From NCBI GenBank assembly GCA_018263335.1, contig JADFCY010000017.1:1-38569 (forward strand): a stretch of DNA of 38,569 nt. Direction: 5' to 3'. The notes below the pieces were generated by a model. The model was not told where the DNA came from, did no database searches, and saw only the letters and a list, made by a program, of their open reading frames with translations. Both the position numbers and the translations under genes were made by a program. The stretch comes from Methanolinea sp. (GTDB lineage Archaea; Halobacteriota; Methanomicrobia; Methanomicrobiales; Methanospirillaceae). Below are positions 1,258-34,205 of this stretch, piece after piece (position 1 is the stretch's first letter; each line of letters opens with the position of its first letter).

Positions 1258-2183
1258 CCACGGCCTCGTCGGAGCACCTCCCGGACTGCGTATGCGGGGA
1301 GGGCGGTTGCGGCAGGCCCGATCTCCAGGGAGAGATCTGTCCCCCCCAGCACGGAGGAAAGGAGCCCGGAGCCTGTTCCCGCGGTATAGATGCGGCATGC
1401 CCCGGACTCGTCCATCGCTCTCGCGACCGCATTTCGGATCACCTCCCGCTGGGCGTCCCAGAAGGCATGTGCTACCTGGAGGGCGCCCCCAGCCCCGATC
1501 TCCTCAAGGTCCGCACAGACGACCCGCGCGAGCCGCCGGAGGCAGGATGCACGGTTCTTCCCTTTCCTGTCGGGGGTGTCGCACGAGTAGTCCTCCTCCC
1601 CGATGTGGCCGAGCGCCAGGTGTGCGTCCGCGCTGATGGAAAACTGCTCCGCGCTCACGGGGGTCGAAAAACCGCCAAGGGAAACACTCCTGACGACCGC
1701 GGGAATGGTCGTGCGGAGGAGCCCCGTGTAGACAAGGTAGCCTTTCTGGAGCCGCAGGAGATCGGTGAGGCCGTAGAGGGGAGAGAGCGATCCCAGCGGG
1801 ATGATGTCGGTCGTGGTGCTCCCCATGTCCACGAGCAGGCCTTCCGGGTCACGTTCATGGAGAAACGCAGCGGACGCAAGCCAGTTGGCCGCGGCGAGGG
1901 CTGGAACCGGGGAGTCGTGGAACCGGCCGTCGGTGCCGTAGAAGAGCGCTTCCGGAAAGACCTCCCGGACGGTCCTTGTGATCCAGGCCACGCCCTCGCT
2001 CTTGGTCGAGAAGCAGTCCGCAAGCTCCCCGCTCATCACCACTGCCGCTTCCCCCCCCGCGGCCCGATAGCGACTGAGCACCCGGGAGAGAGGGGCCCCT
2101 TCCCACAAAGGGCAATAGACGGTGTCCACACCCCAGTCCGTTGCAAATTTGACGTTTGCGCCGCCGATATCGATCCCTATCAC
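1251..2183 (-). CDS. mfnF: Methanofuran biosynthesis condensing enzyme (hydantoinase/ASKHA-like, MfnF)
   Basis: MfnF joins the aminomethylfuran phosphate unit to gamma-glutamyl-tyramine in methanofuran synthesis. The 310-aa protein has an ASKHA fold signature: the N-terminal phosphate loop IGIDIGGANVKFA, a second loop DMGSTTTDIIPL near residue 135, and a late AGTGSG motif. Older annotation calls this family an H4MPT-linked C1-transfer pathway protein. The GTG start at 2183 shares GTGA with the mfnD stop, and GGGAGGGTGGAG lies just upstream. The pairing with mfnD supports the assignment strongly. Confidence 0.88.
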   Translation of the reverse strand: MIGIDIGGANVKFATDWGVDTVYCPLWEGAPLSRVLSRYRAAGGEAAVVMSGELADCFSTKSEGVAWITRTVREVFPEALFYGTDGRFHDSPVPALAAANWLASAAFLHERDPEGLLVDMGSTTTDIIPLGSLSPLYGLTDLLRLQKGYLVYTGLLRTTIPAVVRSVSLGGFSTPVSAEQFSISADAHLALGHIGEEDYSCDTPDRKGKNRASCLRRLARVVCADLEEIGAGGALQVAHAFWDAQREVIRNAVARAMDESGACRIYTAGTGSGLLSSVLGGTDLSLEIGPAATALPAYAVREVLRRGRGW

Positions 2184-3067
2184 AGCCGCTCCACCCTCCC
2201 ATGGCTGTCGAACCGGGCCCTCCCCCGCAGGTGCACCTCGTTGGGCCCGCCGCCCTTGGAGGCCTGGACGAGGATCTCTGCGATCTCCTCCTGCATGCAT
2301 GCCGCGATCCCGACGATGCTTGTGGTGATACGGGGATTCACGTCAACCACGTAGGGGTGGTCTGCAAGGACGATGTCGACTCCCACATACCCCTGGCAGC
2401 CGAGGATCTGCACCGCCCTTGTTGCGGTATTCACGAGTTCTTCGTGCCGCGGATGCGCGACCGGCGTCTCACCGCCGAGGTACCGGATGCAGCCGTCATC
2501 TCCGAACGCGATCAACTGGCGGTTCACCGCGAGCAGCAGGGGCGGCTTGCCGGTGTAAAAGGAGCAGGCATCCCCGACCACCCGGCTTCCCACGAGGCTC
2601 ACGCTCAGGTGCTCGCCCTCGATGTAGTCCTGGGCATACTCCCCCTTGCCGGGAGGCTCTTTTGTCAGGCAGACACCTACCGAGCCGCAGCCGAGCGCGG
2701 GCTTGACCACCTGGGTGGCGGTCGATCCCGATCCCGGCACCGGGACGCCGTTCCTGGCCAGGATCTGCCCGCACTGCACTTTGTCGGCGCACACGGCGGC
2801 GTTCATGCTCCCGCATCCCACGCTGTGGGTGTACTTCTCGAGGACAGACGTGAACCGGAAGAGGAGGTGATCGGGGGCTATCACGAGGCCCACGTCGCAG
2901 AGGGGTGCAAGTCTCTTTATCTCCCCGACAAAGTCGCCATCTTCCGGGGTGAGCACCTCGTACCCGCACCGTGCGAAACTCTCCGAAAGGACCCTGAGCA
3001 TTGCCTCGCCTTCGGGTGCCAGGCGGGGATCGTGGAACACGGCATACTCTGCAAGGAGCGCTTTCAT
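2180..3067 (-). CDS. mfnD: Tyramine--L-glutamate ligase (ATP-grasp, MfnD)
   Basis: MfnD is an ATP-grasp ligase that attaches glutamate to tyramine, an early step in methanofuran side-chain synthesis. The 295-aa length fits the family. The central part has the ATP-grasp lysine region (VVKPALGCGSVGV). The C-terminal metal-binding segment is VDIVLADHPYVVDVNPRITTS, with the Asp/Asn residues expected for Mg-ATP. It is the first gene of the operon mfnD-mfnF-small membrane protein. No clear ribosome site precedes ATG 3067. The 81-bp gap to divergent surE must hold both promoters. Confidence 0.88.
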   Translation of the reverse strand: MKALLAEYAVFHDPRLAPEGEAMLRVLSESFARCGYEVLTPEDGDFVGEIKRLAPLCDVGLVIAPDHLLFRFTSVLEKYTHSVGCGSMNAAVCADKVQCGQILARNGVPVPGSGSTATQVVKPALGCGSVGVCLTKEPPGKGEYAQDYIEGEHLSVSLVGSRVVGDACSFYTGKPPLLLAVNRQLIAFGDDGCIRYLGGETPVAHPRHEELVNTATRAVQILGCQGYVGVDIVLADHPYVVDVNPRITTSIVGIAACMQEEIAEILVQASKGGGPNEVHLRGRARFDSHGRVERL

Positions 3068-3148
3068 CGTATTGAATGGGTCGCCGGGCCAGATGAGCGT
3101 GACGATCGGTCAAGTATTTCTCATTGCTCCCCCAACGGGTTGGTGACC

Positions 3149-3946
3149 ATGAAACCCCGCATCCTGCTCACAAATGACGACGGCATCAACTCTGCCGGCC
3201 TGTGGGCCGCCTACGAAGCCCTATCCCCGATTGCACAGGTGACGGTGGTGGCTCCCGCGACCCAGCAGAGTGCGGTAGGGCGGTCCATCTCCATCTTCGA
3301 GCCGATCAGGGCCCACGAGGTCGAGATGAACGGCGTCCGCGCCTGGGCGGTGGGAGGGAAGCCGACCGATGCGGTGATCATCGGGCTCTATGCGCTGGAT
3401 CTCCGGCCCGTCATGGTGGTGAGCGGGATCAATATCGGCGAGAACCTCTCGTTTGAGTCCATCATGACCTCGGGGACAGTGGGAGCCGCGCTCGAGGCGG
3501 CGAACCAGGGGACCCCGGCCATCGCCTTCTCCCTCCAGGTGGAGGACCAGGGGGACAAGTTCGATGACCCGCGCCATCACGCCCAGAGTTTCGAGCAGTC
3601 ACGCAGAGTCGTGAGAGACGTGTGCGGAATCTTCCTCGGGAGGCCTCTTCCGCCCGGTGCCGATATCCTCAACGTGAACATCCCCTCCATGGTGAAGGGC
3701 GGATACGAAGTGACACGCCTCGCGGAGAAGCTCTTTGTGACCGGCGTGGAAAAGAGACTCGATCCCAGGGGAAGGCCCTACTTCTGGATCAACGGCCCCC
3801 TCATCGATGACGCGGGGGAAGGGACGGACGTGCACGCCATCCGGAAGGGCAACGTATCCCTCACACCCATCACGCTCGACTGCACGGCGCAAAGCGCAGG
3901 CCCGGCACTCCGGGCACTCTTCCATGAGGGGGGTGGGAGCGCATGA
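3149..3946 (+). CDS. surE: 5'/3'-nucleotidase SurE
   Basis: SurE is a metal-dependent phosphatase acting on nucleoside monophosphates. The N-terminus has the hallmark LLTNDDG metal-binding motif (Asp-Asp near residues 10-11), then a conserved Ser/Asn region (APATQQSAVGRSIS) and VSGINIGENL. The length of 265 aa is normal. ATG 3149 is chosen because family homology starts there. An open frame continues far upstream but is antisense to mfnD. The stop overlaps the rpiA start (ATGA), so the two genes form an operon. Confidence 0.93.
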   Translation: MKPRILLTNDDGINSAGLWAAYEALSPIAQVTVVAPATQQSAVGRSISIFEPIRAHEVEMNGVRAWAVGGKPTDAVIIGLYALDLRPVMVVSGINIGENLSFESIMTSGTVGAALEAANQGTPAIAFSLQVEDQGDKFDDPRHHAQSFEQSRRVVRDVCGIFLGRPLPPGADILNVNIPSMVKGGYEVTRLAEKLFVTGVEKRLDPRGRPYFWINGPLIDDAGEGTDVHAIRKGNVSLTPITLDCTAQSAGPALRALFHEGGGSA

Positions 3947-9645: not shown

Positions 9646-9782
9646 GGTGGGTTATTATGCGTTACCATTCGAGATTAAGCCTTGGATTGCACTGAGGTGA
9701 ATTCCCCGCATATTTCGTCCAATGTGCCGGGAAGGGTGTGCAAACACACTCTTTTTCACCCCTGCACGCCAAGAATAGAGGG

Positions 9783-10589
9783 ATGAAGGAGCTCCTGGTA
9801 CTCTTCTCCTGCCTGTTTTTCCTGGCATTCCTCGTGCCATGGAAGCTTCGCCACTGGTGTGCAATCATCGGCTGGACCTGCATTGTCCTCTTTCTCTTTG
9901 CAGAGGTACCCTATTATCTCTCAATCAACAACTTCATGTACCCCGTCATGGCGGTGCTCTCGGTCCCGTTCCTCGCGATCACCGCCAGGCACCTCCTCGC
10001 AAGGGAGGTGCTGGTCATGCAGCTCTCGACCGCAGCAGCGGTGGCCTTCCTCATCTATGCGCCGTTCGCATACACTCCCCTGGGCGACTGGCTCATCTCT
10101 GGAGTGGTCGGGCAGACCGCGTGGATGCTCGAGGCCTTTGGGTACCCCCCTCTTACGCTTGACTGGAACCTCCTCTCCCGGAACAACTTCAGGGTTGAGA
10201 TCATCCTTGCCTGCACCGGCATCCAGGCCATCGCCATCATGCTCGGCGTCGTGAGCGCGGTGAAGACGACAATGGAACAGAAAGTGTGGTCGTTTTTCCT
10301 GATAGTCCCCACCATCTATGTCCTGAACATCCTCCGGAACACCGCCGTGATCATCGCCTACACAGAGCAGTGGTTCCCCTTCCTGCCCGAGATCGCCGGG
10401 AACGGCGAGTTCGGGTACGAGAGCTTCTTCTGGGCCCACAACGTGTTCGCTGAAGGCCTTGCCCTCCTGCTGCTCATCGGGATCGCATGGGGCCTCTTCC
10501 GTATCATCCCCGACCTCGCGGATTTTGCGACCGGCCTCGTCCAGCTCTACTGGCATGACATCAGGAGAGCGTTTCGTAAAGATAGATGA
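9783..10589 (+). CDS. artA: Archaeosortase A
   Basis: ArtA is an integral membrane transpeptidase-like enzyme of the exosortase family. It processes secreted proteins with a PGF-CTERM tail, which are then attached to membrane lipid. The 268-aa protein has about seven membrane segments. It has the family catalytic residues: Cys144 in ACTGIQ, Arg185 in NILRNT, and His219 in WAHNVFAE. ATG 9783 fits the family start; a GTG at 9738 would add 15 residues. No PGF-CTERM substrate is encoded in this window. The 3' end overlaps the convergent phosphatidyltransferase gene by 29 bp. Confidence 0.9.
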   Translation: MKELLVLFSCLFFLAFLVPWKLRHWCAIIGWTCIVLFLFAEVPYYLSINNFMYPVMAVLSVPFLAITARHLLAREVLVMQLSTAAAVAFLIYAPFAYTPLGDWLISGVVGQTAWMLEAFGYPPLTLDWNLLSRNNFRVEIILACTGIQAIAIMLGVVSAVKTTMEQKVWSFFLIVPTIYVLNILRNTAVIIAYTEQWFPFLPEIAGNGEFGYESFFWAHNVFAEGLALLLLIGIAWGLFRIIPDLADFATGLVQLYWHDIRRAFRKDR

Positions 10590-19140: not shown

Positions 19141-23629
<4,489 letters not shown>

Positions 23630-31900: not shown

Positions 31901-31955
31901 ATAAATAAATATATCTTCAATTCTAATTCCCATTAATGCTGAAAAATTTCAGCAT
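31901..31955 (+). promoter_or_regulatory. Promoter and 5' hairpin of secreted paralog 1
   Basis: A TATA region (TTATAAATAAATATATC, about 31899-31915) is followed by CAATTCTAA and then a perfect inverted repeat, AATGCTGAAA-AA-TTTCAGCATT (31935-31956). Transcription should start about at the hairpin, so the stem would cap the mRNA 5' end. The ribosome site GGAGTGA follows 9 nt after the hairpin. Confidence 0.6.
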
Positions 31956-31974
31956 TCACTGTAGGAGTGATGCA

Positions 31975-32964
31975 ATGAAAAAACTCATATTTGCGATTAT
32001 CAGCATATCTGTCCTTATCGTAGGACTGGCAATGGCAGCCGACCCGATCAACGCGACCACCGAGACCCAGGGTATCTCGACCACCACTGGTACGGTAGTC
32101 CTCGGGACCATGACCAACTCGGAGACCATTGTGTTTACCGGGTCCACTATGGATATCAGGGACAACCCGCCACTTGGTGCACGCTATGGTGATTGGCTCT
32201 GGGCAGCCGAGGGTCCCAATAACATATGGGTTATTGGGGAAGATGACGGTGATGTATATATTTCCTTACCCGAGCGCCAGGCGGTGATGTCCTATACCGA
32301 GTCTGTCCTCGCTGACAACGGGTACACCGAGTTCAACGAGATGCAATCGATGGACACTGGCAACAAGGTGGTAAACCAGGACAACTTCAAGTCAACCGAA
32401 CAGTTCGACTATGTTGCGTTCAGCGATGCGATGGGCAGGGCAACAACCTCCGAGAGCCTCCTGCTCGACCTGGTGAGCCAGGGATCGCTCGCTGATGACC
32501 GGTTCATTTGTCCGTTCGCCACGGGAGACAATGGTATTATCCCACCGTACTGCAACGTCTACGAGATGGGCTCCTCCTTCACCGGAAGCCAGGTCTCCGA
32601 GATCACCCAGGCCAACACGAACTTTATCGCGAAGTCCGCGGATGTCCCGACTGAGGCCGCTTACTCTATCGGCCTGTCAGGAACCGGCTCTGCAGCTGCA
32701 TGGATTAACACCCATGTCATGGAAGGCAGAACTGCTGGAGTATACTATGGTGATTACTGGGATACGGGTTATCCGGAGCATCATTTCTGGAACTATGACA
32801 TGAATACTGGATGGATTCACACTTATAATGTAAATGATGTAGTTGGAGGATCCGGCTTCATGCAGGGCGTCGACCTTGTGTATAAGGAGAAGACCACCGC
32901 GTCCGGAGTGATCGAAGCGTTCAGCAAGTCGATGGCAGTCCAGGACGGCGTGCGCCGGCTGTAG
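31975..32964 (+). CDS. Secreted paralog 1 with two variable segments
   Basis: The 329-aa protein has a clear Sec signal peptide (MKKLIFAIIS...GLAMA, cut before ADP) and no membrane anchor or PGF-CTERM tail. Residues 97-255 and 294-329 are almost identical to the neighbour gene product. Residues 70-96 and 256-293 are unrelated between the two, and both are rich in Tyr, Trp, Gly, Asp and Asn. Two Cys (CPFATGDNGIIPPYC, residues 179 and 193) may form a disulfide. ATG 31975 has GGAGTGA 5 nt upstream. I do not recognise the family. A surface or extracellular binding protein is an inference. Confidence 0.8.
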   Translation: MKKLIFAIISISVLIVGLAMAADPINATTETQGISTTTGTVVLGTMTNSETIVFTGSTMDIRDNPPLGARYGDWLWAAEGPNNIWVIGEDDGDVYISLPERQAVMSYTESVLADNGYTEFNEMQSMDTGNKVVNQDNFKSTEQFDYVAFSDAMGRATTSESLLLDLVSQGSLADDRFICPFATGDNGIIPPYCNVYEMGSSFTGSQVSEITQANTNFIAKSADVPTEAAYSIGLSGTGSAAAWINTHVMEGRTAGVYYGDYWDTGYPEHHFWNYDMNTGWIHTYNVNDVVGGSGFMQGVDLVYKEKTTASGVIEAFSKSMAVQDGVRRL

Positions 32965-32990
32965 AAACCAGTGTTGACCGATGAGCAAAA

Positions 32991-33031
32991 GGGGCATACG
33001 AAAGCCCCAATCCATTTTCTACGCATTTTTT
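32991..33031 (+). terminator. Terminator of secreted paralog 1
   Basis: GGGGC-ATACGAAA-GCCCC (32991-33008) is a strong 5-bp stem. It is followed by T-rich sequence ending in ATTTTTTTG. It is unlike the terminator of paralog 2. Confidence 0.65.
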
Positions 33032-33139
33032 TGTGTGGTTCGTTCTTATATGGGAAAAAAAGCTCTTCACCGAATGGACTAGGGGAAGTGGGGAGAAAAC
33101 GAGGGCAATACCATCATCTCTCTCCAGAAAAATTGCGGA

Positions 33140-33196
33140 ATTTTAATATAGTCAATTCTAAGAGTGTATTTTCATACTGATTTATTCAGTATGAAA
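33140..33196 (+). promoter_or_regulatory. Promoter and 5' hairpin of secreted paralog 2
   Basis: A TATA element (TTTTAATATAG, about 33140-33151) is followed by CAATTCTAA and then a perfect 11-bp hairpin, TTTCATACTGA-TTTAT-TCAGTATGAAA (33170-33196). The layout equals that of paralog 1, but the stem sequence is different. The ribosome site AGGAGGGA begins 3 nt after the hairpin. Confidence 0.65.
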
Positions 33197-33209
33197 TGTA
33201 GGAGGGATA

Positions 33210-34205
33210 ATGAAAAAAATTGTCCGTATTGTCCTTATCCTTGCCGTCCTCATCGTAGGAATGGCAATGGCGGCCGATCCAATCAACGCGACCACGGAGA
33301 CCCAGGGGATCTCCACCACTATGGGAGTAGTCGTGATGGGCACGATGACAAACTCCGAGTCTGTCGTGATGACCATATCCACCATGGATTTGCGTGACAA
33401 CCCGCCGTTGGGTGCGTTAGGGAACACTCCGGCATATGACGGAGGAGGCTTCTTACCCGGTCTGAATCCAAGTAATCACTGGGCTGACTTTACGTATGGG
33501 CCGGGTATTGAGTTGTTTTCATTACCCGAGCGCCAGGCGGTGATGTCCTATAGCGAGTCTGTCCTCGCTGACAACGGGTACACCGAGTTCAACGAGATGC
33601 AGTCTATGGACACCGGCAACAAGGTGGTGAACCAGGACAACTTCAAGTCGACCGAGCAGTTCGACTATGTCGCGTTCAGTGATGCCATGGGAAGGGCAAC
33701 CACTTCCGAGAGCCTCCTGCTCGACCTGGTGAGCCAGGGATCGCTCGCTGCTGACCGGTTCATTTGTCCGTTCGCCACGGGAGACAATGGTATCATCCCA
33801 CCGTACTGCAACGTCTACGAGATGGGCTCCTCCTTCACCGGAAGCCAGGTCTCCGAGATCACCCAGGCCAACACGAACTTCATCGCAAAGTCCGCGGATG
33901 TCCCGACTGAGGCCGCTTACTCTATCGGCCTGTCAGGAACCGGCTCTGCAGCTGCGTGGATCAACACCCATGTCATGGAGGGCAGGACTGCTGGATATTG
34001 GCCTTACGAAGATTTTGGTGGTTCCGGTATTTTATTCTGGAACTACGATACCGGTGATGGCGCCATTCCATATTTGGGAGGAAATGGGAGGACCGGCTTC
34101 ATGCAGGGCGTTGACCTGGTCTACAAGGAGAAGACCACCGCATCCGGTGTGATCGAAGCGTTCAGCAAGTCGATGGCAATCCAGGACGGCGTTCGCCGGC
34201 TGTAA
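33210..34205 (+). CDS. Secreted paralog 2 with two variable segments
   Basis: The 331-aa protein shares the signal peptide type (ending AMAADP), the motif PINATTETQGISTT and the whole scaffold with paralog 1. Over 159 shared central residues (104-262 here) I count only two substitutions (T to S, D to A), while most DNA differences are silent. Residues 70-103 and 263-295 are replaced by different Tyr/Trp/Gly/Asp-rich sequence. The two Cys of the scaffold are kept. ATG 33210 has AGGAGGGA just upstream. The family and function are unknown. Confidence 0.8.
   Translation: MKKIVRIVLILAVLIVGMAMAADPINATTETQGISTTMGVVVMGTMTNSESVVMTISTMDLRDNPPLGALGNTPAYDGGGFLPGLNPSNHWADFTYGPGIELFSLPERQAVMSYSESVLADNGYTEFNEMQSMDTGNKVVNQDNFKSTEQFDYVAFSDAMGRATTSESLLLDLVSQGSLAADRFICPFATGDNGIIPPYCNVYEMGSSFTGSQVSEITQANTNFIAKSADVPTEAAYSIGLSGTGSAAAWINTHVMEGRTAGYWPYEDFGGSGILFWNYDTGDGAIPYLGGNGRTGFMQGVDLVYKEKTTASGVIEAFSKSMAIQDGVRRL

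What the first reader, a model, noticed from the sequence alone, without database searches (positions are those of the whole stretch)
31975..34205. Tandem secreted paralogs: constant scaffold with two unrelated aromatic-rich variable segments
The two adjacent genes encode secreted proteins whose shared parts are nearly identical (two differences over about 159 residues, with mainly silent DNA changes). Residues 70-96 versus 70-103, and 256-293 versus 263-295, cannot be aligned between them. The variable parts are rich in Tyr, Trp, Gly, Asp and Asn, a composition typical of binding loops. The borders are sharp: about 31 bp are identical right after variable segment 1 (32264-32294 versus 33520-33550). 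This looks like a purified scaffold with exchangeable recognition loops, kept similar by gene conversion. I know no described family with this layout.
Basis: partly seen in the sequence, partly recalled or inferred. Interest (0 to 1): 0.78.

Follow-up and report, generated by a model that had tools for sequence, protein, structure and literature searches.

The report
Methanogen sheath proteins with variable caps
The two genes encode building blocks of the tough amyloid-like tube around Methanolinea cells; their shared part is the tube-forming core, kept alike by gene conversion, and their two differing parts form the outward-facing cap, so the proteins are a known kind, but they carry a so far undescribed RNA hairpin found on sheath genes across the group.

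Summary
In detail: two tandem secreted paralogs have a near-identical core (157/159 residues) and two segments that hardly align. The family is not undescribed. It is the archaeal sheath protein (SH/MspA) family: a profile of 90 relatives finds the main sheath protein of Methanospirillum hungatei (Mhun_2271, E 1.7e-53), both disulfide cysteines are kept, and AlphaFold2 gives the same six long strands for both proteins. Segment 1 lies where the M. hungatei cap domain is inserted. Segment 2 joins strands 5 and 6 and should lie at the same end. A published survey already reports Methanolinea sheath proteins with beta-sheet caps.

The loops are not hypervariable. The ortholog of copy 2 in another species keeps 27/34 and 30/33 loop residues, and copy 1's loop 2 recurs in a third species. 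Silent differences show that the core was homogenised between the paralogs (pS 0.18) after the species split (core pS 0.46), while the N-terminus (0.60) and caps stayed apart. No reverse transcriptase was found, so a diversity-generating retroelement is unlikely.

New here: a covarying hairpin at the inferred mRNA 5' end of many sheath genes, including Mhun_2271. In six genomes not used for the model, 34 of 34 hits precede a sheath gene. It has no Rfam match.

The parts
31975..32964 (+). Sheath (SH) protein gene, copy 1 (329 aa, signal peptide about 1-22)
   Evidence: ORF; SH profile E 1.4e-102
33210..34205 (+). Sheath (SH) protein gene, copy 2 (331 aa)
   Evidence: ORF; SH profile E 1.1e-105; AlphaFold2 model pLDDT 85, pTM 0.82
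32182..32262 (+). Cap segment 1 of copy 1 (residues 70-96)
   Evidence: 6/27 aligned residues identical to copy 2; position of the M. hungatei cap insertion
33417..33518 (+). Cap segment 1 of copy 2 (residues 70-103)
   Evidence: 27/34 residues kept in the other-species ortholog L041:4287-5279; lowest model confidence
32740..32853 (+). Cap segment 2 of copy 1 (residues 256-293)
   Evidence: Recurs in another species, L056:12-626
33996..34094 (+). Cap segment 2 of copy 2 (residues 263-295)
   Evidence: 30/33 residues kept in the other-species ortholog
32263..32739 (+). Converted core of copy 1 (arches 2-5; residues 97-255)
   Evidence: pS 0.18 against copy 2, versus 0.46 between species
33519..33995 (+). 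Converted core of copy 2 (residues 104-262), including conserved Cys186 and Cys200
   Evidence: cysteines align with Mhun_2271 Cys257 and Cys271
31935..31956 (+). 5' leader hairpin of copy 1 (AATGCTGAA...TTCAGCATT)
   Evidence: RNA model R1 match 31928-31977, 47 bits
33170..33196 (+). 5' leader hairpin of copy 2 (TTTCATACTGA...TCAGTATGAAA)
   Evidence: RNA model R1 match 33166-33212, 46 bits
31900..31914 (+). TATA-box-like stretch of copy 1 (TATAAATAAATATAT), about 27-32 bases before the hairpin
   Evidence: Family-wide A+T peak of 91-98% at -30 to -27 from the hairpin
33141..33151 (+). TATA-box-like stretch of copy 2 (TTTTAATATAG)

Best explanation
Both genes encode subunits of the proteinaceous cell sheath of a Methanolinea-type methanogen. 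After secretion, six long kinked strands (arches) per subunit would form two stacked six-stranded sheets, and subunits would join edge to edge into cross-beta rings around the cell, as in M. hungatei. Segments 1 and 2 join arches 1-2 and 5-6. By strand order both sit at the end that carries the cap in M. hungatei, so together they form the outward cap. Copies with different caps can share a ring only if their cores match, so gene conversion and purifying selection keep the cores alike while each paralog keeps its own cap. A hairpin at the 5' end of the mRNA, just before the ribosome binding site, probably supports high expression of the main sheath genes. Shown by computation: family membership, cap position, core homogenisation, loop conservation between species, the hairpin and its gene specificity. 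Inferred: ring co-assembly, cap face and function, hairpin at the mRNA end, and its effect.
For: Profile A1 finds Mhun_2271 at G034:C1:2536906-2537601, E 1.7e-53. Its identity was checked: D43, T86, S144, N157, C257, C271, K363 and 40.5 kDa all match the published protein. Cys257/Cys271 align with Cys186/Cys200. AlphaFold2 gives the same strand order for copy 2 (33-57, 108-134, 145-155+162-175, 199-223, 233-260, 297-326) and Mhun_2271 (35-60, 181-207, 218-227+234-246, 270-295, 305-314+324-339, 346-373). M. hungatei cap residues T86, S144 and N157 fall in the insertion that corresponds to segment 1. Several matches per genome in Methanolinea relatives, none in Methanoregula-like genomes, as PMC11576556 reports. 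Homogenisation: core pS 0.18 between paralogs versus 0.46 between species (third positions 20/159 vs 54/159, Fisher p 9e-6) and versus 0.60 at the N-terminus (20/159 vs 35/69, p 3e-9). Orthologous loops kept. Hairpin: 49 of 50 matches in six genomes directly precede an SH gene, the other lies at a contig end; 34 of 34 in six unused genomes.
Against: No sheath has been seen in this organism; the genome is a draft. Whole-model fold searches against PDB and BFVD gave nothing useful; no SH structure showed up in the PDB copy, and long thin models score poorly. Conversion is clear for the window pair; other same-genome pairs are weaker. The N-terminal part of arch 1 was not homogenised, although it should also lie in the ring interface. 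The published D43-K363 salt bridge is not conserved (V41 and E316 in copy 2).
Confidence: 0.88

Rival explanations
1. Recognition-loop system: secreted scaffold proteins whose two loops are actively diversified or shuffled to bind changing targets (viruses, partner cells), like an antibody or a diversity-generating retroelement target.
For: Two loops rich in Tyr, Trp, Gly, Asp and Asn. Loop 2 is shared without loop 1 between some copies (G9c with G2 or G12: loop 2 identity 0.71-0.74, loop 1 0.33-0.39), so the two loops can be reassorted. Caps face outward in M. hungatei.
Against: Orthologous loops are conserved across species with pN/pS about 0.2-0.3. No reverse transcriptase in a 99% complete genome. 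The scaffold is an amyloid-like ring subunit.
Confidence: 0.1
2. Recent duplication followed by replacement of the caps, instead of conversion between old paralogs: one gene was copied and then received the promoter, N-terminus and both caps of an older paralog.
For: It gives the same mosaic of silent distances. Tandem recent duplicates do occur in the family (G011 pair with pS 0.00).
Against: Needs several independent tracts (leader plus N-terminus, segment 1, segment 2) instead of one core tract and a C-terminal tract. Copy 2 and its ortholog lie next to the same neighbour gene in both species.
Confidence: 0.15
3. The leader inverted repeat is a DNA operator for a transcription regulator, not an RNA hairpin.
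For: It is a palindrome near the inferred transcription start, and compensatory changes would keep a DNA palindrome too.
Against: Loop length varies from 3 to 10 and 17 of 52 leaders use G-U pairs. The distance to the start codon is nearly fixed, mostly 17-21 bases.
Confidence: 0.25

Closest known systems
Methanospirillum hungatei SH / MspA (Mhun_2271, WP_011449234.1; PMC6242892, PMC10593813)
   Same: Profile homology, signal peptide, six long arches, two conserved cysteines, cap inserted between arches 1 and 2, and the same leader hairpin.
   Different: Its cap is one large insertion with six helices and a sheet, and the arch 5-6 turn is short. Here the cap is two small beta-rich segments, one in each place.
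Methanolinea SH proteins of the ISME J 2024 survey (PMC11576556)
   Same: Same lineage, multicopy, clustered, cap inferred to be a five-stranded beta sheet; rings proposed to mix subunits with different caps.
   Different: The main text does not mention gene conversion, recombination, or any leader hairpin.
Diversity-generating retroelement targets
   Same: Conserved scaffold with variable aromatic-rich residues.
   Different: No reverse transcriptase in the genome; whole segments differ, not scattered codons; loops are conserved between species.

Membership tests
Archaeal sheath (SH/MspA) protein | Sequence homology to the MS- and cryoET-identified M. hungatei SH | tested here: met
   Profile A1 matches Mhun_2271, E 1.7e-53; identity of the gene checked residue by residue
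Archaeal sheath (SH/MspA) protein | Core of two six-stranded antiparallel sheets linked by six beta-arches | tested here: met
   Six long strands in the same order with the same break in arch 3 in both models. Read from DSSP, not from superposed coordinates
Archaeal sheath (SH/MspA) protein | Cap domain facing outward | tested here: inconclusive
   Segment 1 is at the cap insertion site and segment 2 at the same end by strand order; orientation in a sheath was not observed
Archaeal sheath (SH/MspA) protein | Two cysteines proposed to link adjacent rings (Cys257, Cys271) | tested here: met
   Cys186 and Cys200; nearly invariant in the family
Archaeal sheath (SH/MspA) protein | D43-K363 contact between neighbouring subunits | tested here: not met
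   V41 and E316 in copy 2. Proposed for one species from a docked model, so not treated as defining
Archaeal sheath (SH/MspA) protein | Secretion signal | tested here: met
   N-terminal MKK plus hydrophobic helix (residues 2-15) and an AMAAD cleavage-like site, by inspection; no SignalP run
Archaeal sheath (SH/MspA) protein | Polymerises into amyloid-like sheath rings | not testable with these tools
   Needs cryoET or amyloid staining
Diversity-generating retroelement target | Reverse transcriptase and template repeat in the genome | tested here: not met
   No PF00078 match in the genome; control genomes ring

The most novel reading that the evidence does not exclude
Sheath genes of Methanolinea- and Methanospirillum-type archaea form an RNA-marked set: a conserved 5'-terminal hairpin leader, not described so far as I could find, sits on the main sheath genes and on almost nothing else, while gene conversion homogenises only the ring-forming core of co-expressed copies and spares their caps. 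Core homogenisation then identifies which subunits co-polymerise.
Probability: 0.55. Interest if true: 0.62.

Novelty: new member of a known kind. Interest (0 to 1): 0.45.

Why it matters
The M. [quoted passage not shown] A core that is homogenised while caps stay distinct is a genomic sign of which copies co-assemble, and the leader hairpin gives a genome-wide marker that may predict which of up to 40 copies are the main subunits. In M. hungatei the only strong leader among about ten sheath genes is on the gene reported as most transcribed. Both predictions can be tested with existing transcriptomes and pure cultures.

Tried and rejected
Pfam, NCBIfam and PHROGs gave no family. Sequence searches of solved structures found nothing. 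Foldseek against PDB listed pore-forming proteins with TM-scores of about 0.1, and BFVD was likewise without a real match; both were rejected as chance similarity of long beta hairpins. One viral contig scan found no relative, although SH-like viral proteins are published, so these may be too divergent for the patterns used. A diversity-generating retroelement was rejected. Wholly hypervariable loops were rejected by the cross-species orthologs. A simple recent duplication was rejected as the sole explanation because the N-terminus, leader and caps are old while the core is young. Rfam has no match to the leader. The G052 leader match (E 1.1e-5, no SH gene in that genome) is taken as a chance hit.

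Full report
OBSERVATION. The two genes (31975-32964 and 33210-34205, + strand) are as described. The core differs at 2 of 159 residues and 22 of 477 bases; the C-terminal 36 residues differ at one. The two segments share 6/27 and 10/33 aligned residues, with gaps. The first 69 residues are clearly more diverged (71.5% DNA identity) than the core. The exact 31-bp run is at 32266-32296 versus 33522-33552, two bases off the stated place. The composition claim holds: Tyr+Trp 9-24% in the segments versus 3% elsewhere, and per-site entropy 1.3-1.6 bits versus 0.2-0.35.

FAMILY. No Pfam, NCBIfam or PHROGs family matches. The own genome (a Methanolinea-type archaeon, judged by its named relatives) has eight matching places, and relatives in the same family have up to 40. 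A profile of 90 members (A1) finds about ten places in G034, whose single contig of 3,544,738 bases and gene content fit M. hungatei JF-1. One of them, read from its GTG start, has D43, T86, S144, N157, C257, C271 and K363 and a mass of 40.5 kDa, all as published for the sheath protein Mhun_2271/WP_011449234.1 (PMC10593813, PMC6242892). The profile match to it has E 1.7e-53. The other families of the order had no match to the single protein, and Methanoregula-like genomes none to the profile. This is the distribution reported for sheath proteins in PMC11576556: present in Methanospirillum and Methanolinea, absent in Methanoregula, many copies per genome, clustered.

STRUCTURE. AlphaFold2 on copy 2 with 90 relatives gives pLDDT 85 and pTM 0.82, with six long strands; the stretches of lowest confidence are in segment 1. 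The same method on Mhun_2271 gives the same order of six long strands, with the same break in arch 3. The M. hungatei cap (published exposed residues T86, S144, N157) falls between arches 1 and 2, at the place of segment 1, and its arch 5-6 turn is short where segment 2 stands here. Counting strands, the 1-2, 3-4 and 5-6 connections lie at one end. This puts segment 1, the cysteine loop and segment 2 together at the cap end. The model's short strands 90-96, 100-104, 262-268 and 271-278 fit the published statement that the Methanolinea cap is a five-stranded sheet. In many other relatives both segments are nearly absent. The proposed inter-ring cysteines are kept (Cys186, Cys200), the D43-K363 pair is not.

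EVOLUTION OF CORE AND CAPS. G009, another species of the genus, has three copies beside the same neighbour gene. Its copy L041:4287-5279 keeps the loops of window copy 2 (27/34 and 30/33 residues; pN 0.12 and 0.06, pS 0.45 and 0.37). Loop 2 of window copy 1 recurs in L056 (G004, a third species). The loops are therefore paralog-specific and under purifying selection, not hypervariable. Silent distances in the core are 0.18 between the window paralogs but 0.46 between copy 2 and its ortholog (third positions 20/159 versus 54/159, p 9e-6), and 0.60 between the paralogs at the N-terminus (p 3e-9). The paralogs are thus older than the species split and their cores were homogenised after it, most simply by gene conversion. 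Purifying selection on the protein alone does not make silent sites alike. Loop 2 without loop 1 is shared among G9c, G2 and G12, so the two cap halves can be reassorted over long times. A second genus (G014) shows constant cores with unalignable caps at the same two places, but clear conversion is shown only for the window pair.

LEADER HAIRPIN. Both window genes have an inverted repeat just before the ribosome binding site (31935-31956, 33170-33196). In the held loci, 34 of 87 sheath genes and 15 of 286 other genes have a perfect repeat of 7 or more base pairs within 60 bases upstream (p 1e-13). A 52-leader alignment shows 91% paired cells, 14 double changes against 2.9 in shuffles, and no shuffle reaching the covariation score; relatedness inflates such counts, but slid controls also fall well below. 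A covariance model finds 50 places at E <= 1e-3 in six genomes: 49 directly before sheath genes and one at a contig end. In six genomes not used to build it, 34 of 34 matches precede sheath genes. Class-wide, 25 of 119 genomes have matches; 24 are in sheath-bearing genera, and the one outlier has no sheath gene. The model contains the ribosome binding site and start codon, so part of its score is general, but other genes share those features and are rarely found. In M. hungatei the strong match is on Mhun_2271 alone, the gene reported as the most transcribed sheath gene; two weak matches precede unrelated genes. A strong A+T peak 27-30 bases before the hairpin fits a TATA box and places the hairpin at the 5' end of the mRNA. 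Variable loop length and G-U pairs favour RNA over a DNA operator. A 5'-terminal hairpin is known in other organisms to protect mRNA (general knowledge), which would suit a bulk structural protein. No match in Rfam, and no mention in the main text of the 2024 survey.

VERDICT. The proteins belong to a known family and their caps are a known feature. The addition is the evolutionary pattern, core converted and caps kept, which argues against rapidly exchanged loops, and the leader hairpin. The recognition role of the caps remains possible but without direct support.

Noticed in passing
window 31928-31977 and 33166-33212; G034:C1:2538033-2538081 and about 100 other places: Conserved covarying hairpin in the 5' leader of sheath genes, at the inferred mRNA 5' end, largely specific to sheath genes across Methanolinea- and Methanospirillum-like genera; no Rfam family.
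   Followed up: yes
L038:3735-4178 (-); also L042, L046, L052, L058, L149: Half-length sheath proteins (about 140-180 aa: signal peptide plus roughly the last arches, 148 aa in the own genome) recur beside full-length copies in several species. They could end or edge a ring.
   Followed up: partly
G034:C1, leaders of the roughly ten sheath genes: Only Mhun_2271, the reported main sheath gene, has a strong leader hairpin; the lesser expressed copies inspected lack it.
   Followed up: partly
L154:1069-1114 and L155:1206-1260 (M. hungatei): Weak leader-model matches before a gene that looks like lumazine synthase (ribH) and a sensor-kinase-like gene, probably chance.
   Followed up: partly
window 19186-23626: Adjacent gyrB and gyrA genes in this archaeon.
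   Followed up: no
window 9738-10586: Archaeosortase A gene in the same window as the sheath genes; it anchors other surface proteins, and the sheath proteins end in RRL without a PGF-type anchor.
   Followed up: no
window 2156-3943: ORF with SurE nucleotidase only in its C-terminal half (residues 332-589); the N-terminal half was not identified.
   Followed up: no
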